NCBI GenBank assembly: GCA_029004215.1
Contig: JAQULH010000006.1
Span: 1 to 49,509, forward strand
DNA length: 49,509 bases
DNA from: Patescibacteria group bacterium
GTDB taxonomy: Bacteria > Patescibacteriota > Patescibacteriia > 2-12-FULL-60-25
Direction: 5' to 3'
Shown: piece by piece, positions 1,944 to 46,803 of the stretch
How the letters are laid out: each line of letters begins with the position of its first letter
Position numbering within the stretch: position 1 is the first letter of the stretch
Program-made: the position numbers and the translations under genes
The notes under the pieces: model-generated
Database searches by the model: none
What the model was told of the DNA's origin: nothing
What the model saw: the letters and a program-made list of their open reading frames with translations, nothing else

Positions 1944-1990
1944 ATATAAAAAACAACCGCGTTCTCGAGTGAGTGTGCGGTTTTTGAGAT
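1944..1990. terminator. Repeat copy 1: bidirectional terminator hairpin
   Basis: The stem AACCGC...GCGGTT is flanked by an A-run on the left and a T-run on the right, so it can end transcription on both strands: the NUDIX gene (plus) and the Ro transcription unit (minus). The whole 46-bp block recurs almost identically at 6933-6978, with one substitution and one indel. Confidence 0.75.
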
Positions 1991-2002
1991 ACACAAACAA
2001 AT

Positions 2003-2046
2003 AATCCCCCGAACCAGACGATAATCGTCATCTGCTTTGGGGGAAA
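2003..2046. other. Hairpin in the gap between terminator and 176-residue gene
   Basis: TCCCCC and GGGGGA bracket a palindromic core GACGATAATCGTC. It lies in the 3' untranslated part of the minus-strand Ro unit. No coding potential is seen in 1991-2095. Confidence 0.4.
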
Positions 2047-2095
2047 ACTCACCAATTATTATGCCCGGTGAGAGAAGGGCGAGAATATCGCTTCG

Positions 2096-2626
2096 CTATC
2101 GAGCTTCGAGCTTCTCGAAGTCCTTGGTCAAGCTGGCGATGGCGGATTTGGCCCAGAACGTGCCGTACGGCTCATGCTCCAGGCGATCCTCGGGGCGGAT
2201 GTTTGCGGCGACGTAGGCTTGCAGCCGTTTTGCCCGCGCGTAGTACTCCTCTCCGTACTCCTCGCCTCTTAAGGGGTAGACGGTGAAAGGATGTACGTGC
2301 GTCTCTGGCGGGCGGAACACTGTTACCAAACTCACATATCCGCTCAGGATAGATGAGAAGGAACGATGCATCCGACCCCCTGTAGGGAGCCTCCTCTGGT
2401 AAAAGGAGTGCAGGCTGTGACCCGTGATGACACAGAGACCATGATTCCCGTCCTGTGCTACATCGCCATCCTTGACGTCGATTCGGCTCATCGCTTGCTG
2501 GTAGGTCTGGGACATGCGACGTCCATGCGCGTCTTCGCGCTTACGGAGTGCGGGGACACGCGGGTCAGGCACTCCGAATTCTTCGCGCAACGCTTTTCTG
2601 CCCTGAGCTGAGTTCAAACTCATCAT
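2096..2626 (-). CDS. Hypothetical protein, last gene of the Ro transcription unit
   Basis: This is a 176-residue protein with no family I recognise. The ATG at 2626 is chosen because GGAGG lies 6 bp upstream; the frame stays open 31 codons further upstream, but that part runs through a repeated leader hairpin. The sequence is hydrophilic, has no signal peptide or membrane segment, and ends with a Lys/Glu-rich helix-like tail. Its 5' leader contains copy (a) of an element also found before the Ro gene, so the two genes are probably co-regulated. The last codons overlap a CGAGCTTCGAG-type repeat. It might be a partner of the Ro protein, but only position supports that. Confidence 0.6.
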   Translation of the reverse strand: MMSLNSAQGRKALREEFGVPDPRVPALRKREDAHGRRMSQTYQQAMSRIDVKDGDVAQDGNHGLCVITGHSLHSFYQRRLPTGGRMHRSFSSILSGYVSLVTVFRPPETHVHPFTVYPLRGEEYGEEYYARAKRLQAYVAANIRPEDRLEHEPYGTFWAKSAIASLTKDFEKLEAR

Positions 2627-2668
2627 GGTAGCCTCCTTGGATTGTTTGGATTGAGAAAGAGATTGTCT

Positions 2669-2742
2669 CCTCTTTCGTTTCCGACAAGATGTCAGAATCG
2701 AGAGATGAGGCGCGAGCACAGTGTTTGCTGCTCGCGCCGGAA
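2669..2742 (-). promoter_or_regulatory. Two-hairpin leader element, copy (a)
   Basis: On the minus strand a perfect 10-bp stem GGCGCGAGCA/TGCTCGCGCC (2709-2738) is followed by a second hairpin containing TTCTGACA...TGTCGGAA, and then AAAGAGGAG. The second hairpin is nearly identical to copy (b) and related to copy (c). The gene's own GGAGG lies about 35 bp further on. Confidence 0.6.
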
Positions 2743-2744
2743 GA

Positions 2745-3160
2745 AGTTGTGCGATGCTCCACCTACTCCTGGTGGAGACATTCGTGCCTGCGCACGTCCC
2801 CTGCCACCGCGCTTTGCGCTATCGCGATGACGGAGGTTTGGAAGCCGCGTAAAACTTCCATTTGGCTACTGCCCCGTAGGATTGCGCGTCCTCGGGTCCA
2901 ACAGTAACCGCAATGCTTGGCCGTCGCACCGGCCAAACCCTGCACACAGTCCAGAAGGCACAGTAGCGAAGATGTGCCCTTCCGGGACCGCCTGTGTTTC
3001 CCACTTCGGCGGCTATCGTGGTCCAGGCCGCTACAAGCCTGGAAGTTGGGACGCGATGGTCACTTACGCAGTGACCATCGCCCACGAACTAGGTGACCGT
3101 GTCTCACCCGCCTAGTCATCATATCCCGATTGTTCCGGATAAAATGACTAAACGGGTGAT
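2745..3160 (-). ncRNA. Candidate structured non-coding RNA between Ro gene and 176-residue gene
   Basis: This block of about 415 bases has no convincing ORF and is filled with strong hairpins: a 15-bp helix at 3105-3158 enclosing a smaller stem, a perfect 12-bp hairpin at 3053-3081, and stems at 3023-3042, 2955-2981, 2917-2936, 2783-2796 and 2757-2777. In the 15-bp helix two positions are U-G pairs if read on the minus strand but C/A mismatches on the plus strand, which argues that the RNA is made from the minus strand, the same as the Ro gene. Bacterial Ro proteins are known to bind Y RNAs encoded nearby. I cannot match this sequence to a known Y RNA. Confidence 0.55.
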
Positions 3161-3179
3161 TTATTTTTATGGAACATGC

Positions 3180-3262
3180 CTCCTCTTTCGTTTCCGACAA
3201 GACGTCAGAATCGAGAGATGAGGCGCGAGGGACTTTGTTATCCTCGCGCGAGAGAGTTGAGG
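3180..3262 (-). promoter_or_regulatory. Two-hairpin leader element, copy (b)
   Basis: The 50-odd bases at 3180-3232 are almost identical to copy (a), including TCCTCTTTCGTTTCCGACAA on the plus strand. On the minus strand the GC stem (CTCGCGCGAG...CTCGCGCC) precedes the TTCTGACG/TGTCGGAA hairpin and AAAGAGGAGG. It leads into the structured RNA block, not an obvious gene; the only ORF after AGGAGG is nine codons long and sits too close to it. Confidence 0.6.
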
Positions 3263-3286
3263 TTGGAGGGAGAACGGCCTGACGGG

Positions 3287-3314
3287 GAGCTCGCTGATGT
3301 TATTCAGCGAGCTC
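3287..3314 (-). other. Strong stem-loop just after the Ro stop codon
   Basis: A perfect 10-bp stem GAGCTCGCTG/CAGCGAGCTC, extended by ACGGG/CCCGT, starts about 13 bases after the stop. There is no U-tract on the minus strand, so it may protect the 3' end or mark processing more than terminate. Confidence 0.5.
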
Positions 3315-3327
3315 AACCCGTGCTCGG

Positions 3328-5031
3328 TCATTCCGGCTCATGCAGGGCACGCTTCGCGGGCTCCCAACCGTTGATCAGATCAACCGCTTGGCGTCCGTCC
3401 TCTTCGAGAAGAGGCAGGATCTCAAGCGCTCGTTCAGACCATCCGGCCAGGCATGCCACGCGCCGTTCACTCGGCGGGAACTGAGCTGTCCCGTAACCAG
3501 AGAGATCCACAGAGTGCATGAACACCTGGGGATTCACTGAGCTGCGGTACTTGCGCAATTCCTCAGCCAATGACTCGTTGCGCGCATGACCCCAAAGCAT
3601 GGGATCATGGCCCGAAGCGTAGCACTGCATGTCCGAGATCAGGACGATCCGGTCGACCCGAATCTTCCTTTCCCGGAGATGGCGCACCGGCAGGTACGCG
3701 TTCGTAGAGCCACCATGCACGGCGTTCGAGAGCCGGGCCATGTTTGTGAAGATCGAATCCTTGCGGATGATCGGCACAATGACATGGTCGGTCCCAAAAG
3801 CCGAACAGATGGACTCCTCGCACAACGTATGGCTGACGGCGGCCAACAGGTTGGCTACATCCTTCATCTCCACCGTGCTTCGCTCAGAAAGCGGGTGACT
3901 CATGGATCCGGAATTGTCAGACATGATGAACGTGCGGCCCGGCAAGCGGGGCAAATTCACCAGCGACAGCTCCATGGCCGTGAGGATCGCTTCCAAGACT
4001 TCGGCGCGGCGCGGATGGTTGAGGATGGCCTGGTCCACGACAAAGCATTGCTGCCGCTTGTCGAACCTGTAGCCGGTCTCGATGACCTTGTAGGCCGAGA
4101 AGAAGCGGAATGGCATCTGCCTTGACCGTTGCACATGCTCGGGATTGCGGAACATGGACAACACGCGATCAAGCGCCTGGTCAGCGCCCTTTCGCATGAT
4201 GTTCGAGAGGTTTCGCAGCCCGGCCATGAACGGCAGGAAGCGGAGCGCGTTCCAGACTTCTGCGGTGTTGCCGAACTTGGACGTCAGCACCTCCCACGTG
4301 GCGTGGGCGCGGGCCGCAAGCTCGATGGCTTCGGGATCAAGCTGCTCCTTGCGGAGCAACTCGGCCTTAGCCGCCAGCTTGGGCAGGTGCGTTGCGTTAA
4401 TCTCCTGCTTCACCAAGTACCGGAACAGCGCCGACTGAGCGTCGCTGACCGGCTTGGGGCGGAGAATGCGCAAGGCGTCGCGCAGTTTGACAGCACCATC
4501 GCGGTCATACTTGGCGAACTGGTACTCGTCGAACTGCCCGAGCGCGTCTTGGAGACCGCGCGTGAGCGAGTTCGGCAGAGCATGTTCCTTGCCTTGGGCA
4601 TCGGCCGAGCCGATGCTGCCATGACGCAGGATCCAGTAAGCCAGCGTTTCCGCGATCTCGTCCGCGCGCCGCACAATCTGCGGCGTCCAGCGACGGACGA
4701 AAGGCTTGCAGGCCGGAATGGCCGCAGCCTCGACGAGCAGAGTGACCGGGGTCGAGCGGATGCCTACGACTTGGCGGGTGTAAGCCGCCAGGCGCAGGAC
4801 AAATTCCGGATCAACCTCAGCCGCTTGCCCGATGTCCGAGACAAGTTCGGCGTCGGCCTGGTTGGCCTCGGTGTAGAACTTGTCTTCGCGCATGAGCGAC
4901 GCAACGGCCCAAGTGTAGAGCCGAGTGCGCGGGTCAAACGCGAATGCCAGGCCGCCCTCATGGTTGGCTGTGGCATTGGGATGGGAAACGAGCTGCTGGT
5001 TGATCGAGAGCGCGACGTTGGACTTTGCCAT
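3328..5031 (-). CDS. Ro60-like TROVE/vWA RNA-binding protein
   Basis: The protein belongs to the Ro60 (TROVE) family, ring-shaped proteins that bind Y RNAs and misfolded or structured RNA; the Deinococcus member Rsr works in rRNA and stress RNA processing. The 567 residues have the family's usual two-part layout: an alpha-helical TROVE domain (about 15-355; landmarks RLYTWAVASLMREDKFY, PEFVLRLAAYTRQ, TRGLQDALGQFDEYQFAKY) and a vWA domain (about 365-560) with a complete MIDAS: DNSGSM near 372, Thr in GGSTNAYL, Asp in LISDM. The ATG at 5031 is chosen because GGAGG sits 5 bp upstream; an ATG four codons earlier would overlap it. Both flanks hold structured non-coding sequence. GC-rich compared with many neighbours. 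Confidence 0.93.
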   Translation of the reverse strand: MAKSNVALSINQQLVSHPNATANHEGGLAFAFDPRTRLYTWAVASLMREDKFYTEANQADAELVSDIGQAAEVDPEFVLRLAAYTRQVVGIRSTPVTLLVEAAAIPACKPFVRRWTPQIVRRADEIAETLAYWILRHGSIGSADAQGKEHALPNSLTRGLQDALGQFDEYQFAKYDRDGAVKLRDALRILRPKPVSDAQSALFRYLVKQEINATHLPKLAAKAELLRKEQLDPEAIELAARAHATWEVLTSKFGNTAEVWNALRFLPFMAGLRNLSNIMRKGADQALDRVLSMFRNPEHVQRSRQMPFRFFSAYKVIETGYRFDKRQQCFVVDQAILNHPRRAEVLEAILTAMELSLVNLPRLPGRTFIMSDNSGSMSHPLSERSTVEMKDVANLLAAVSHTLCEESICSAFGTDHVIVPIIRKDSIFTNMARLSNAVHGGSTNAYLPVRHLRERKIRVDRIVLISDMQCYASGHDPMLWGHARNESLAEELRKYRSSVNPQVFMHSVDLSGYGTAQFPPSERRVACLAGWSERALEILPLLEEDGRQAVDLINGWEPAKRALHEPE

Positions 5032-5045
5032 GGCTGCCTCCACGC

Positions 5046-5165
5046 TGCCCCGATTTCATCGGGGAGTAGTTTGGGTTGTAAGTTTCAATCCTCCTCTTCC
5101 ATTCCCGACTTTTGTCAGGACTGGGAGAGGCGGCGCGAGCAAGGTTGAGCCAAGCTCGCGCAAGA
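5046..5165 (-). promoter_or_regulatory. Leader element, copy (c), plus start-proximal hairpin of the Ro gene
   Basis: On the minus strand: stem GCGCGAGC/GCTCGCGC, then a hairpin closed by CCTCT/AGAGG with CCTGAC-AAAA-GTCGGG inside, then a third stem CCCCGAT/ATCGGGG directly before the GGAGG of the Ro gene. The architecture matches copies (a) and (b), though its sequence has diverged. The pyrimidine arm CCTCT can pair with the purine tract AAGAGGAGG, suggesting a switchable ribosome-site-like tract. Confidence 0.6.
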
Positions 5166-5660
5166 GAAACACCAGAGGGAAAAGGCGGATTCGGTTTCTT
5201 GTCGTGACGCCGTATCGCCACAACATCCATGAAGTCTTACGACCCCATAGATTCACTCTTTGCGACCCGGATTGATCCGGGTCCCGACAAATCCTTTTAC
5301 GGAGGACGTCGGTTTGCAGCCTTCTGATTGCGAATAGTACGAAGGAACCGGACCCTACGCCGCTCTGGTGAGATTTTGAGGTTGGGAGAAAGGCCGAATG
5401 GAGTCGTCTGAATATACAATCAGATGATTTTCTTCGAAGTAACTCCACTCTACGCTACCCAATTCCTCGTCACGCCAGACCAGAGTTGATCAAGCAGGAC
5501 GAGGAACCGAGAGGCTCCCCGCAAACCACACGAGGGCTGGTTAATCCCGTTTCACCCGGAACTATGCCGGGTGGCTTTGGATTTAATCAGCTTGCCTAGT
5601 AAGCATCTCTAGGTCGTTTGATGGTGATTGTAAGGTTCTTTTCTCCTGTTCAACCTTCAA
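5166..5660 (-). ncRNA. Structured 5' region of the Ro unit: long leader or separate small RNA(s)
   Basis: No believable ORF is present, but there are many stems: 5264-5283 (GACCCGG/CCGGGTC), 5285-5312 (CCGAC/GTCGG), 5320-5345 (CCTTC/GAAGG), 5399-5447 (TGGAGT/ACTCCA with TCTGA/TCAGA inside), 5463-5506 (TTCCTCGTC/GACGAGGAA), 5595-5613 and an imperfect hairpin of 56 bases at 5536-5591 capped by CACCCGG/CCGGGTG. The promoter-like site at 5669-5697 points into it. By position it is the best place for a Y-like RNA upstream of a bacterial Ro gene. Confidence 0.5.
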
Positions 5661-5668
5661 CGTAAAGA

Positions 5669-5697
5669 ACCCTAGCATGGCTCTAGAAATTTGTCAA
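5669..5697 (-). promoter_or_regulatory. Candidate promoter of the Ro transcription unit
   Basis: On the minus strand a perfect TTGACA (5692-5697) is followed after 17 bp by TAGGGT (5669-5674). The -35 is consensus and the -10 is weak, so other factors may be needed. Confidence 0.45.
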
Positions 5698-5855: not shown

Positions 5856-5884
5856 TTGACAAAAAGGCATTTTTCTGTTAGTTT
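5856..5884 (+). promoter_or_regulatory. Promoter of the divergent small transcription unit
   Basis: TTGACA (5856-5861), a 17-bp spacer, TAGTTT (5879-5884). It faces away from the Ro promoter across an AT-rich gap (5698-5855) that holds no gene. Confidence 0.6.
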
Positions 5885-6063
5885 ATCGCGATGGTTTGAA
5901 GAGGTGATTCGTCACCCCTCGGGCCATGCCTACCCTCACTTGCCGTTTAAAACCGACCCAACACCTCCGAAGAATAGTGGAACTAGTGGAACGACGCGAT
6001 CATCAGCATTGACTGTCCTTCGCTCGCGTATACGGTGAAAACCGTTCCACAAAGGAGGCCGCT

Positions 6064-6081
6064 ATGGGTTCCGGACGCTAA
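6064..6081 (+). CDS. Possible five-codon ORF (MGSGR)
   Basis: ATG-GGT-TCC-GGA-CGC-TAA follows AAAGGAGG (6051-6058) with ideal 5-bp spacing and is followed 8 bp later by a strong terminator. The ribosome site is among the best in the window, which is odd for so short an ORF; it may serve ribosome capture or attenuation. Confidence 0.3.
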   Translation: MGSGR

Positions 6082-6088
6082 CGGCAAG

Positions 6089-6124
6089 CCCCCGCCTACG
6101 ACCACTCGTACGGCGGGGTTTTGC
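6089..6124 (+). terminator. Strong intrinsic terminator
   Basis: CCCCGCC and GGCGGGG enclose a loop and are followed by TTTTGCGTTT on the plus strand. No T-tract exists on the minus strand, so it serves the plus-strand unit and not the TrmB gene. Confidence 0.8.
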
Positions 6125-6137
6125 GTTTATAGGCCTT

Positions 6138-6887
6138 TTAATCTAATTTTTTAAACTTGTCAGATGACTGCCAGGCAATATCAAATAATGCTTTCATGGT
6201 CTGAGCGATGCCTTTATTTTCAATAACCACACCCACGACCTTCCCTTTATAAGATGCCAGAGCCGTCTTATCGCCATAAACCAAAACATCACCTTCGAAA
6301 GCGAATTTCTCTTTCGGCAGATGCCTGGCATCCACGCCCTCACGAACAGCCTTGATGTCTCCCGCTAAAAATGCCCGACCCTTGCCCCTGGCTTTTTCCA
6401 TTATCTTATGTGCCGATTCCAAATCATTATAAGTAAATACGTTCTTAACCGCATTAACATTGGTTATTTCGTAGGTCATCTCCGGTTCGCTTGCTACCAA
6501 ATCACTCAAAATCGACTTTATTCCATTCGCCCCTTCAAAAAACTTAATGGTTGGTTTATCGCCCTTACGCAGTGCGTTCAATTCCTCAATGTTTTCAGCA
6601 ATTTCTTTAATTTTAATCTCTAATTCTTTAAGGCGGGTCTGACCAAAATGCAACAATCTTTCAGGCGGTTCTGCCGCGTAAACATTACGTTTGCCTTTTA
6701 AAACAAAACTCATCAAGCCTTTATTAACCAATTGCTCTATTGCCTGGTAAGTTGCTGGACGTGAAAAACCGGAATTCTTAGCTAGAGCCTGGGGCTGAGC
6801 CGGACCGATCTCCAAACTCAATAGATAGATAGCTATTTCACTATCGTTCAGGCCTAAGGGCTTAAAAAGCTTTTTAAAATCAGACAT
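6138..6887 (-). CDS. TrmB-family transcriptional regulator
   Basis: A 249-residue cytoplasmic regulator. The N-terminal winged helix-turn-helix (about 10-75: SEIAIYLLSLEIG, FSRPATYQAIEQLVNKGLM) is typical of TrmB/TrmBL proteins. A coiled-coil stretch (about 80-108) follows, then a C-terminal phospholipase-D-like or effector region ending QTMKALFDIAWQ. Ligand and targets are unknown. On the minus strand TATAAT (6900-6905) lies 12 bp before the ATG, with TTACTT 17 bp upstream of it and no Shine-Dalgarno. Proteins like this are frequent in Patescibacteria and archaea. Confidence 0.88.
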   Translation of the reverse strand: MSDFKKLFKPLGLNDSEIAIYLLSLEIGPAQPQALAKNSGFSRPATYQAIEQLVNKGLMSFVLKGKRNVYAAEPPERLLHFGQTRLKELEIKIKEIAENIEELNALRKGDKPTIKFFEGANGIKSILSDLVASEPEMTYEITNVNAVKNVFTYNDLESAHKIMEKARGKGRAFLAGDIKAVREGVDARHLPKEKFAFEGDVLVYGDKTALASYKGKVVGVVIENKGIAQTMKALFDIAWQSSDKFKKLD

Positions 6888-6932: not shown

Positions 6933-6978
6933 ATATAAAAAACAACCGCGTTCTCGAGTGAGTGCGCGGTTTTGAGAT
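6933..6978. terminator. Repeat copy 2: terminator of the radical SAM gene
   Basis: Nearly identical to 1944-1990. The stem starts right after the radical SAM stop and runs into a T-tract on the minus strand. The two copies flank the whole Ro/TrmB segment. Confidence 0.75.
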
Positions 6979-46573: not shown

Positions 46574-46803
46574 AATGGTAATTGGCAGAGGCTTGATAAA
46601 CACAAAGCCCGCCGCCAGCGGCAACCTTTCGGTCGCCCATATCTCTTTCGAGACATGACCATACAAGTAGTGCTGAACGACGGGTTCAGTATCTTGTATG
46701 GGTTTCATGCCATGCCCGTGCCAAGGCGCGAGTTTAGGCGGGTTTAAATTGTGTCATCATAGTACCCAAATCTACCCAACCTGTGAAGATGTTGCTTTTC
46801 CCC

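What the first reader, a model, noticed from the sequence alone, without database searches (positions are those of the whole stretch)
1944..5697. Candidate bacterial Ro ribonucleoprotein locus
A complete TROVE/vWA Ro60 protein is embedded in a single-strand transcription unit in which about 900 bases are non-coding and hairpin-rich, followed by a small unknown protein and ended by a strong terminator. Seen: gene order, MIDAS, hairpins, promoter-like site, terminator. Known: Ro60 proteins bind Y RNAs, and in bacteria these are encoded close to the Ro gene. Inferred: one or both structured blocks are Ro ligands, and the 176-residue protein belongs to the same system. None of the usual RNA-repair or nuclease partners (RtcB, PNPase) is adjacent, so the arrangement may be new.
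Basis: partly seen in the sequence, partly recalled or inferred. Interest (0 to 1): 0.85.

Follow-up and report, generated by a model that had tools for sequence, protein, structure and literature searches.

The report
Ro protein with tandem Y RNAs
A tiny-genome Uhrbacteria-type bacterium makes a Ro60-like RNA-binding protein from one transcript with two Y RNAs, one of a new multi-helix type, and the pair sits as an exchangeable unit inside a wider, unreported kind of operon packed with structured RNAs.

Summary
A complete Ro60/Rsr protein (best start ATG 5031, to 3328, minus strand) lies between two strongly folded non-coding blocks (z -7.9 and -8.9). Relatives split the locus into two parts with different histories.

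(1) The 3' part of block 1 (5462-5170) is two tandem Y RNAs: a short one, and a multi-helix one with no tRNA-like arm. A covariance model built without the window finds the second at E = 7.7e-17, with strong covariation. In 381 genomes it occurs only in four Ro genomes, plus one whose contig ends where Ro would start. A stem descriptor derived from these RNAs also finds Y RNAs beside unrelated Ro genes of archaea, phages and proteobacteria.

(2) The 5' RNA, block 2, the 176-aa gene, three SD-hairpins, the TrmB regulator and a divergent five-codon 'minigene' RNA (MGSGR*) are not Ro-specific. A congeneric genome without Ro keeps them and has another gene exactly where Y-a, Y-b and Ro sit.

So one block, not both, is a supported Ro ligand. 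The 176-aa protein is not Ro-linked. The arrangement is new: Ro plus Y RNAs as a swappable unit in a TrmB/minigene operon. Binding, expression and function remain untested.

The parts
3328..5031 (-). Ro60/Rsr protein (TROVE + vWA with MIDAS), about 567 aa; ATG 5031 preferred over GTG 5043
5382..5462 (-). Y-a: short Y RNA stem (outer stem, asymmetric internal loop, inner stem, GUUACUUC motif)
   Evidence: same architecture next to unrelated Ro genes
5170..5370 (-). Y-b: 201-nt Y RNA with the same lower stem (GUUCCUUC motif) and a multi-helix module, no tRNA T-arm
   Evidence: held-out covariance model hit 5172-5368, 65.7 bits, E 7.7e-17; covariation; Ro-only distribution
5489..5661 (-). 5' structured RNA at the start of the transcript, not Ro-specific
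   Evidence: promoter plus this stretch (window 5787-5489) aligned 70% to G033, which lacks Ro; alifold z -5.6, 7 compensatory pairs
5669..5697 (-). sigma70-type promoter of the Ro operon
   Evidence: TTGACA-N17-TAnnnT layout also in other Ro loci
5086..5164 (-). SD-containing double hairpin, copy 1, before Ro
   Evidence: model R2 built without the window: 60.8 bits, E 5.7e-12
3175..3254 (-). SD-containing double hairpin, copy 2, before block 2
   Evidence: 57.3 bits, E 3.7e-11
2741..3174 (-). block 2: highly structured RNA, platform component, not Ro-specific
   Evidence: z -8.9; conserved with covariation in G033 without Ro, z -12.6; no Y motif
2663..2740 (-). SD-containing double hairpin, copy 3, before the 176-aa gene
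   Evidence: 51.3 bits, E 9.7e-10
2096..2626 (-). 176-aa protein of unknown function
   Evidence: no family match; 53% identical homologue in G033 without Ro, none in Ro genomes G006/G010
1948..1987 (-). intrinsic terminator of the operon; core duplicated at 6941-6964
5856..6122 (+). divergent minigene RNA: promoter TTGACA 5856-5861 / TAGTTT 5879-5884, strong SD, ORF MGSGR* 6064-6081, terminator about 6090-6122
   Evidence: MGSGx* minigenes beside close TrmB orthologues
6138..6887 (-). TrmB-family regulator
   Evidence: Pfam TrmB 7e-10; the Ro-adjacent TrmB is the best match in 10 of 11 Ro genomes

Best explanation
The locus makes a Ro ribonucleoprotein. One sigma70-type transcript starting near 5661 carries a structured 5' RNA, two tandem Y RNAs (Y-a 5462-5382, Y-b 5370-5170) and the Ro mRNA. 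Ro binds the shared lower stem of each Y RNA (outer stem, asymmetric internal loop, inner stem, then GNUHCWUC). The upper part of the RNA, a hairpin in Y-a and a conserved multi-helix module in Y-b, gates Ro's RNA-binding surface and/or tethers a partner, as the Deinococcus Y RNA tethers Rsr to PNPase. The RNP would then sort or feed structured or damaged RNA to a nuclease. Output is set by the adjacent TrmB regulator acting on a divergent promoter pair and, for translation, by the SD-containing hairpin before the genes. Ro plus its Y RNAs is one exchangeable cargo in a wider operon type whose other parts (TrmB, minigene RNA, 5' RNA, block 2, 176-aa gene) also occur without Ro. Shown: RNA structure, covariation, co-occurrence with Ro, gene neighbourhood, absence of the Y RNAs where Ro is absent. 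Inferred: binding, processing, regulation by TrmB, partner nuclease, cell function.
For: Held-out model finds Y-b. Y-b occurs in 5 of 381 class genomes: four with Ro, plus G458, where TrmB, promoter and Y stems are present and the contig ends inside a further Y stem. Covariation: 21 of 42 pairs with double changes against a shuffle mean of 11.8; 89.6% of cells paired against 33-48% when partners are slid. The motif is 41 sense vs 7 antisense in 12 Ro-type leaders, expected 5.3, and near background in leaders without Ro. The same descriptor finds Y stems by Ro genes in Haloarcula, Natribaculum, Methylosinus (overlapping RF02553 YrlA matches) and several phages, mostly on the Ro strand. Sister genomes G599/G750: leader RNA z -19, 36 compensatory pairs. 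In G033 (no Ro) the window segment 5488-3268 is replaced while both flanks align. PNPase-like gene in the genome. Deinococcus precedent: PMC4726728.
Against: No binding, structure or transcript data. Rfam's YrlA model does not hit the window and there is no tRNA-like arm. The descriptor came from these loci and has background hits in GC-rich coding DNA; it found none in six of the eleven Patescibacterial loci at the threshold used, where only the motif supports Y stems. No PNPase-domain hit in six of the eleven Ro genomes, so PNPase may not be the common partner.
Confidence: 0.78

Rival explanations
1. One reading: both blocks are Ro ligands and the 176-aa protein is a Ro partner.
For: All lie in one apparent transcription unit and both blocks are strongly folded; the same double hairpin precedes Ro, block 2 and the 176-aa gene.
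Against: Block 2 has no Y motif and survives with covariation beside the 176-aa gene in G033, which has no Ro; the 176-aa protein is absent from Ro genomes G006 and G010.
Confidence: 0.08
2. The leader RNA is a cis-regulator (riboswitch, attenuator or autoregulatory site) of Ro expression rather than a free Y RNA; Ro may bind it to control its own mRNA.
For: It is a leader co-transcribed with Ro; several relatives have an intrinsic-terminator-like hairpin between RNA and Ro (G599/G750, G701); SD-containing hairpin before Ro.
Against: The same stems lie upstream or downstream of other Ro genes as separate RNAs; several stems in one leader are more than a switch needs. Not exclusive: both could hold.
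Confidence: 0.12
3. The hairpins are a chance product of GC-rich sequence or a repeat unrelated to Ro.
For: GC-rich DNA gives background descriptor hits.
Against: z -7.9; held-out E 7.7e-17; covariation reached by 0 of 500 shuffles; Ro-only distribution.
Confidence: 0.02

Closest known systems
rsr-yrlBA-rtcBA operon (Salmonella; Methylosinus L040 here) with YrlA/YrlB RNAs (RF02553)
   Same: Ro homologue with adjacent Y RNAs on the Ro strand; same lower-stem architecture and motif class (UACAUYG against UACUUCG)
   Different: Here no RtcB/RtcA/RtcR seen beside it; the regulator is TrmB-family; Y RNAs precede Ro as its leader; Y-b carries a non-tRNA multi-helix module; the Rfam YrlA model does not hit
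Deinococcus radiodurans Rsr-Y RNA-PNPase (RYPER)
   Same: TROVE/vWA Ro with a Y RNA encoded next to it; a PNPase-like gene exists in this genome (PMC4726728)
   Different: PNPase not adjacent; no PNPase-domain hit in six of the eleven Ro genomes; two or more Y stems per transcript
Phage and haloarchaeal Ro loci with multiple Y RNAs (Arthrobacter phage Atuin L039, Haloarcula L036)
   Same: Several Y stems with (G)NUACUUC or UUCCUUC beside Ro
   Different: Those lie among tRNA genes and some contain tRNA-like T-arm sequence; here one long leader without T-arms
Bacterial minigenes (axe-txe mini-ORFs, PMC8708949)
   Same: SD plus an ORF of a few codons with a likely regulatory role
   Different: Here a separate divergent RNA conserved beside a TrmB regulator, with MGSGx* ORFs, not a leader of a toxin gene

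Membership tests
Ro60/Rsr protein family | TROVE domain | tested here: met
   PF05731 E 7.1e-34, over cut-off
Ro60/Rsr protein family | C-terminal vWA domain with MIDAS (DxSxS) | tested here: met
   vWA_Ro60 over cut-off; DNSGS in the translation
Ro60/Rsr protein family | Relatedness to solved Ro60 and TROVE proteins | tested here: met
   9l5y/9kop 3e-25, RO60 9nen 1e-5; NCBIfam Rsr equivalog found but far below its cut-off
Bacterial Y RNA | Encoded next to a Ro gene | tested here: met
   5462-5170, just upstream of Ro, same strand
Bacterial Y RNA | Conserved lower stem with Ro-type motif | tested here: met
   Descriptor shared with unrelated Ro loci incl. YrlA sites; motif enrichment
Bacterial Y RNA | Binds Ro | not testable with these tools
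   needs a binding assay
YrlA subfamily (RF02553) | Match to the Rfam model, with tRNA-like module | tested here: not met
   No hit in the locus even at E 10; no tRNA call in the locus
rsr-yrl-rtcBA RNA repair operon | RtcB/RtcA/RtcR adjacent | tested here: not met
   Neighbours examined are TrmB, radical SAM, GMP-synthase-like and NUDIX-like frames; RtcB elsewhere in the genome not searched
RYPER (Rsr-Y-PNPase) | PNPase in the genome | tested here: met
   G000:C49, 26.8 bits, over cut-off
RYPER (Rsr-Y-PNPase) | Y RNA tethers Ro to PNPase | not testable with these tools
   no interaction data

The most novel reading that the evidence does not exclude
Uhrbacteria-type Patescibacteria carry a previously undescribed operon class: a TrmB regulator and a divergent minigene RNA (ribosome-loading RNA with MGSGx* ORFs) control a long transcript of large structured RNAs and small cargo genes, many announced by a shared SD-containing double hairpin. 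Cargo is exchanged between strains, and Ro with its large Y RNAs is one cargo. The system may be an RNA-based stress or conflict island coupled to ribosome state.
Probability: 0.45. Interest if true: 0.9.

Novelty: new variant of a known kind. Interest (0 to 1): 0.78.

Why it matters
It places Ro RNPs in reduced-genome Patescibacteria, gives a new Y RNA subtype with a covariance model and a conserved non-tRNA module, and suggests one lower-stem motif shared by Y RNAs of bacteria, archaea and phages, which makes Y RNA discovery and Ro-binding tests direct. It also exposes an operon type rich in large structured RNAs in some of the smallest bacterial genomes, where long non-coding RNA is unexpected.

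Tried and rejected
Rfam scan of the window: nothing in the locus. Viral-contig scan with Ro: nothing. Block 2 as a Y RNA: no motif. Block 2 by sequence search in the Ro loci: only the boundary hairpin matches. Y-b in TrmB loci without Ro: no convincing hit; one 17-bit partial match of 30 positions in L112. Structure of the 176-aa protein: pLDDT 47 with two sequences, not usable. RNAalifold's own inner-stem pairing for Y-b was replaced by the pairing seen in Y-a; helix 2 remains one of the less well supported helices. The key paper on bacterial Y RNAs (10.1261/rna.047241.114) is not held, so its published motif could not be compared. Integron-like cassettes were considered for the double hairpin; not tested, and the exchanged segment does not start at a hairpin.
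Full report
Observation. The window is from a Patescibacteria genome of about 1.2 Mb. Its nearest named relative with the same Ro is a Candidatus Uhrbacteria MAG, JACRQE010000005, 71% identical Ro. Ro has TROVE and vWA_Ro60 domains, an intact DNSGS MIDAS, and relatives among solved TROVE and RO60 proteins. Both blocks beat all dinucleotide shuffles. No Rfam family matches the locus at its gathering score.

Relatives. Ro is sporadic: 3 of 41 genomes of the order and 10 of 381 of the class, with one more found in a related order. Eleven Ro loci including the window were read. In each, a TrmB-family gene lies next to Ro with a long region between them that has no obvious protein gene; in L028 TrmB points the other way. 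The Ro-adjacent TrmB is the best match of the window's TrmB in 10 of the 11 genomes, each of which has 2-9 TrmB matches; in G575 the adjacent copy is split or truncated.

Y RNAs. The leaders share hairpins ending in a (G)NUACUUC-like motif. A descriptor (outer stem, asymmetric loop, inner stem, motif) finds two in the window (5462-5382 and 5370-5170), with a mean of zero in shuffles. The descriptor was drawn from these loci, so independent tests were made. (a) Applied unchanged to Ro loci from other lineages, it finds stems beside Ro in Haloarcula, Natribaculum, Methylosinus (at sites Rfam scores as YrlA below its gathering score), Arthrobacter, Gordonia, Thermus and crAss-like phages and others, mostly on the Ro strand, with some background in coding DNA. 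(b) A covariance model of the longer RNA, Y-b, from three other genomes with the window held out finds window 5368-5172 at E 7.7e-17. (c) In 381 class genomes it is found only in four Ro genomes and G458. In G458 TrmB and the promoter are present and the contig ends inside a further Y stem, so Ro's absence there is probably a truncation. (d) Six Y-b sequences give 21 of 42 pairs with double changes, reached by none of 500 shuffles, and slid controls collapse; six sequences is few, and the alignment is fitted to the model. (e) Sister leaders of G599/G750 give z -19 with 36 compensatory pairs. (f) The 8-base motif occurs 41 times sense and 7 antisense in 14.6 kb of leader, 5.3 expected, and near background in leaders without Ro.

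Y-b is a new subtype. Its module has a GGARCGAAAGYUCC hairpin, a long hairpin with strong covariation, and a GUACGG-loop hairpin; the window copy has lost much of the first. There is no T-arm, unlike YrlA.

What is not Ro-specific. G033, same genus, has no Ro but keeps TrmB (80% identical), a minigene (MGSGG*), the promoter and 5' RNA (window 5787-5489, 70% identity), and block 2 plus the 176-aa gene and terminator region (window 3267-2005, 62%). Between them is a different 171-aa frame instead of Y-a, Y-b and Ro. Block 2 covaries between the two (z -12.6, 29 compensatory pairs, best shuffle 27), as does the 5' RNA (z -5.6), while the coding control does not (z -1.2). The three SD-containing double hairpins in the window are found by a model built without it, and the same element occurs in G033, G007 and G009, which lack Ro.

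Minigene RNA. In all eleven Ro loci the TrmB-to-Ro interval has a strong SD followed by an ORF of a few codons, often Gly-containing; such ORFs are much rarer elsewhere in the same loci. In the window it is MGSGR* at 6064-6081 on the plus strand, with its own promoter and terminator. Seven close TrmB loci of the order, with or without Ro, all carry MGSG-type minigenes (L063-L069). The G599/G750 copies are structured (z -6.7). Minigenes are known as cis-acting regulators (PMC8708949); a role here is conjecture.

Mechanism. Established knowledge: bacterial Rsr binds the lower stem of Y RNAs, and the Deinococcus Y RNA tethers Rsr to PNPase (PMC4726728); Salmonella's rsr operon answers to RtcR and tRNA damage (PMC7790460). 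By analogy the Patescibacterial Ro should bind Y-a and Y-b and use the Y-b module as gate or tether. The genome has a PNPase-like gene, but six of eleven Ro genomes gave no PNPase-domain hit, so the partner may differ. These steps are inference.

Limits. All genomes are draft or MAG assemblies without transcript data. No paper found in the held library describes this arrangement, but the library lacks most subscription papers, including the main bacterial Y RNA survey, so novelty is judged with that gap.

Noticed in passing
window 46620-46740, minus strand: LOOT RNA (RF03000), 79.9 bits, over its gathering score.
   Followed up: no
window 1952-1975 and 6941-6964: Identical terminator cores bracket the TrmB-Ro locus, no other copy in the window; possible trace of insertion by recombination.
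   Followed up: partly
L061 (G033), L093 (G007), L094 (G009), L096 (G016): TrmB plus MGSGx* minigene plus divergent promoters followed by long structured-looking RNAs and small unknown genes, without Ro: apparently a general operon type of this family.
   Followed up: partly
L003 1860-3870: The closest Ro relative has a 2-kb leader with a 67% identical internal duplication of a Y-a/Y-b pair and a further short Y stem right before Ro.
   Followed up: partly
L036 (Haloarcula plasmid) 2428-2880; L043 2532-2860: Apparent haloarchaeal Y RNAs next to a TROVE gene (in L036 beside a tRNA array); no Rfam Y RNA match in L036, L043 not scanned.
   Followed up: partly
L093 about 1500-1960 downstream of the TrmB end: RNA with a hairpin like block 2's GGCCGGUGCGACGGCC, suggesting block 2 belongs to a wider RNA family.
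   Followed up: no
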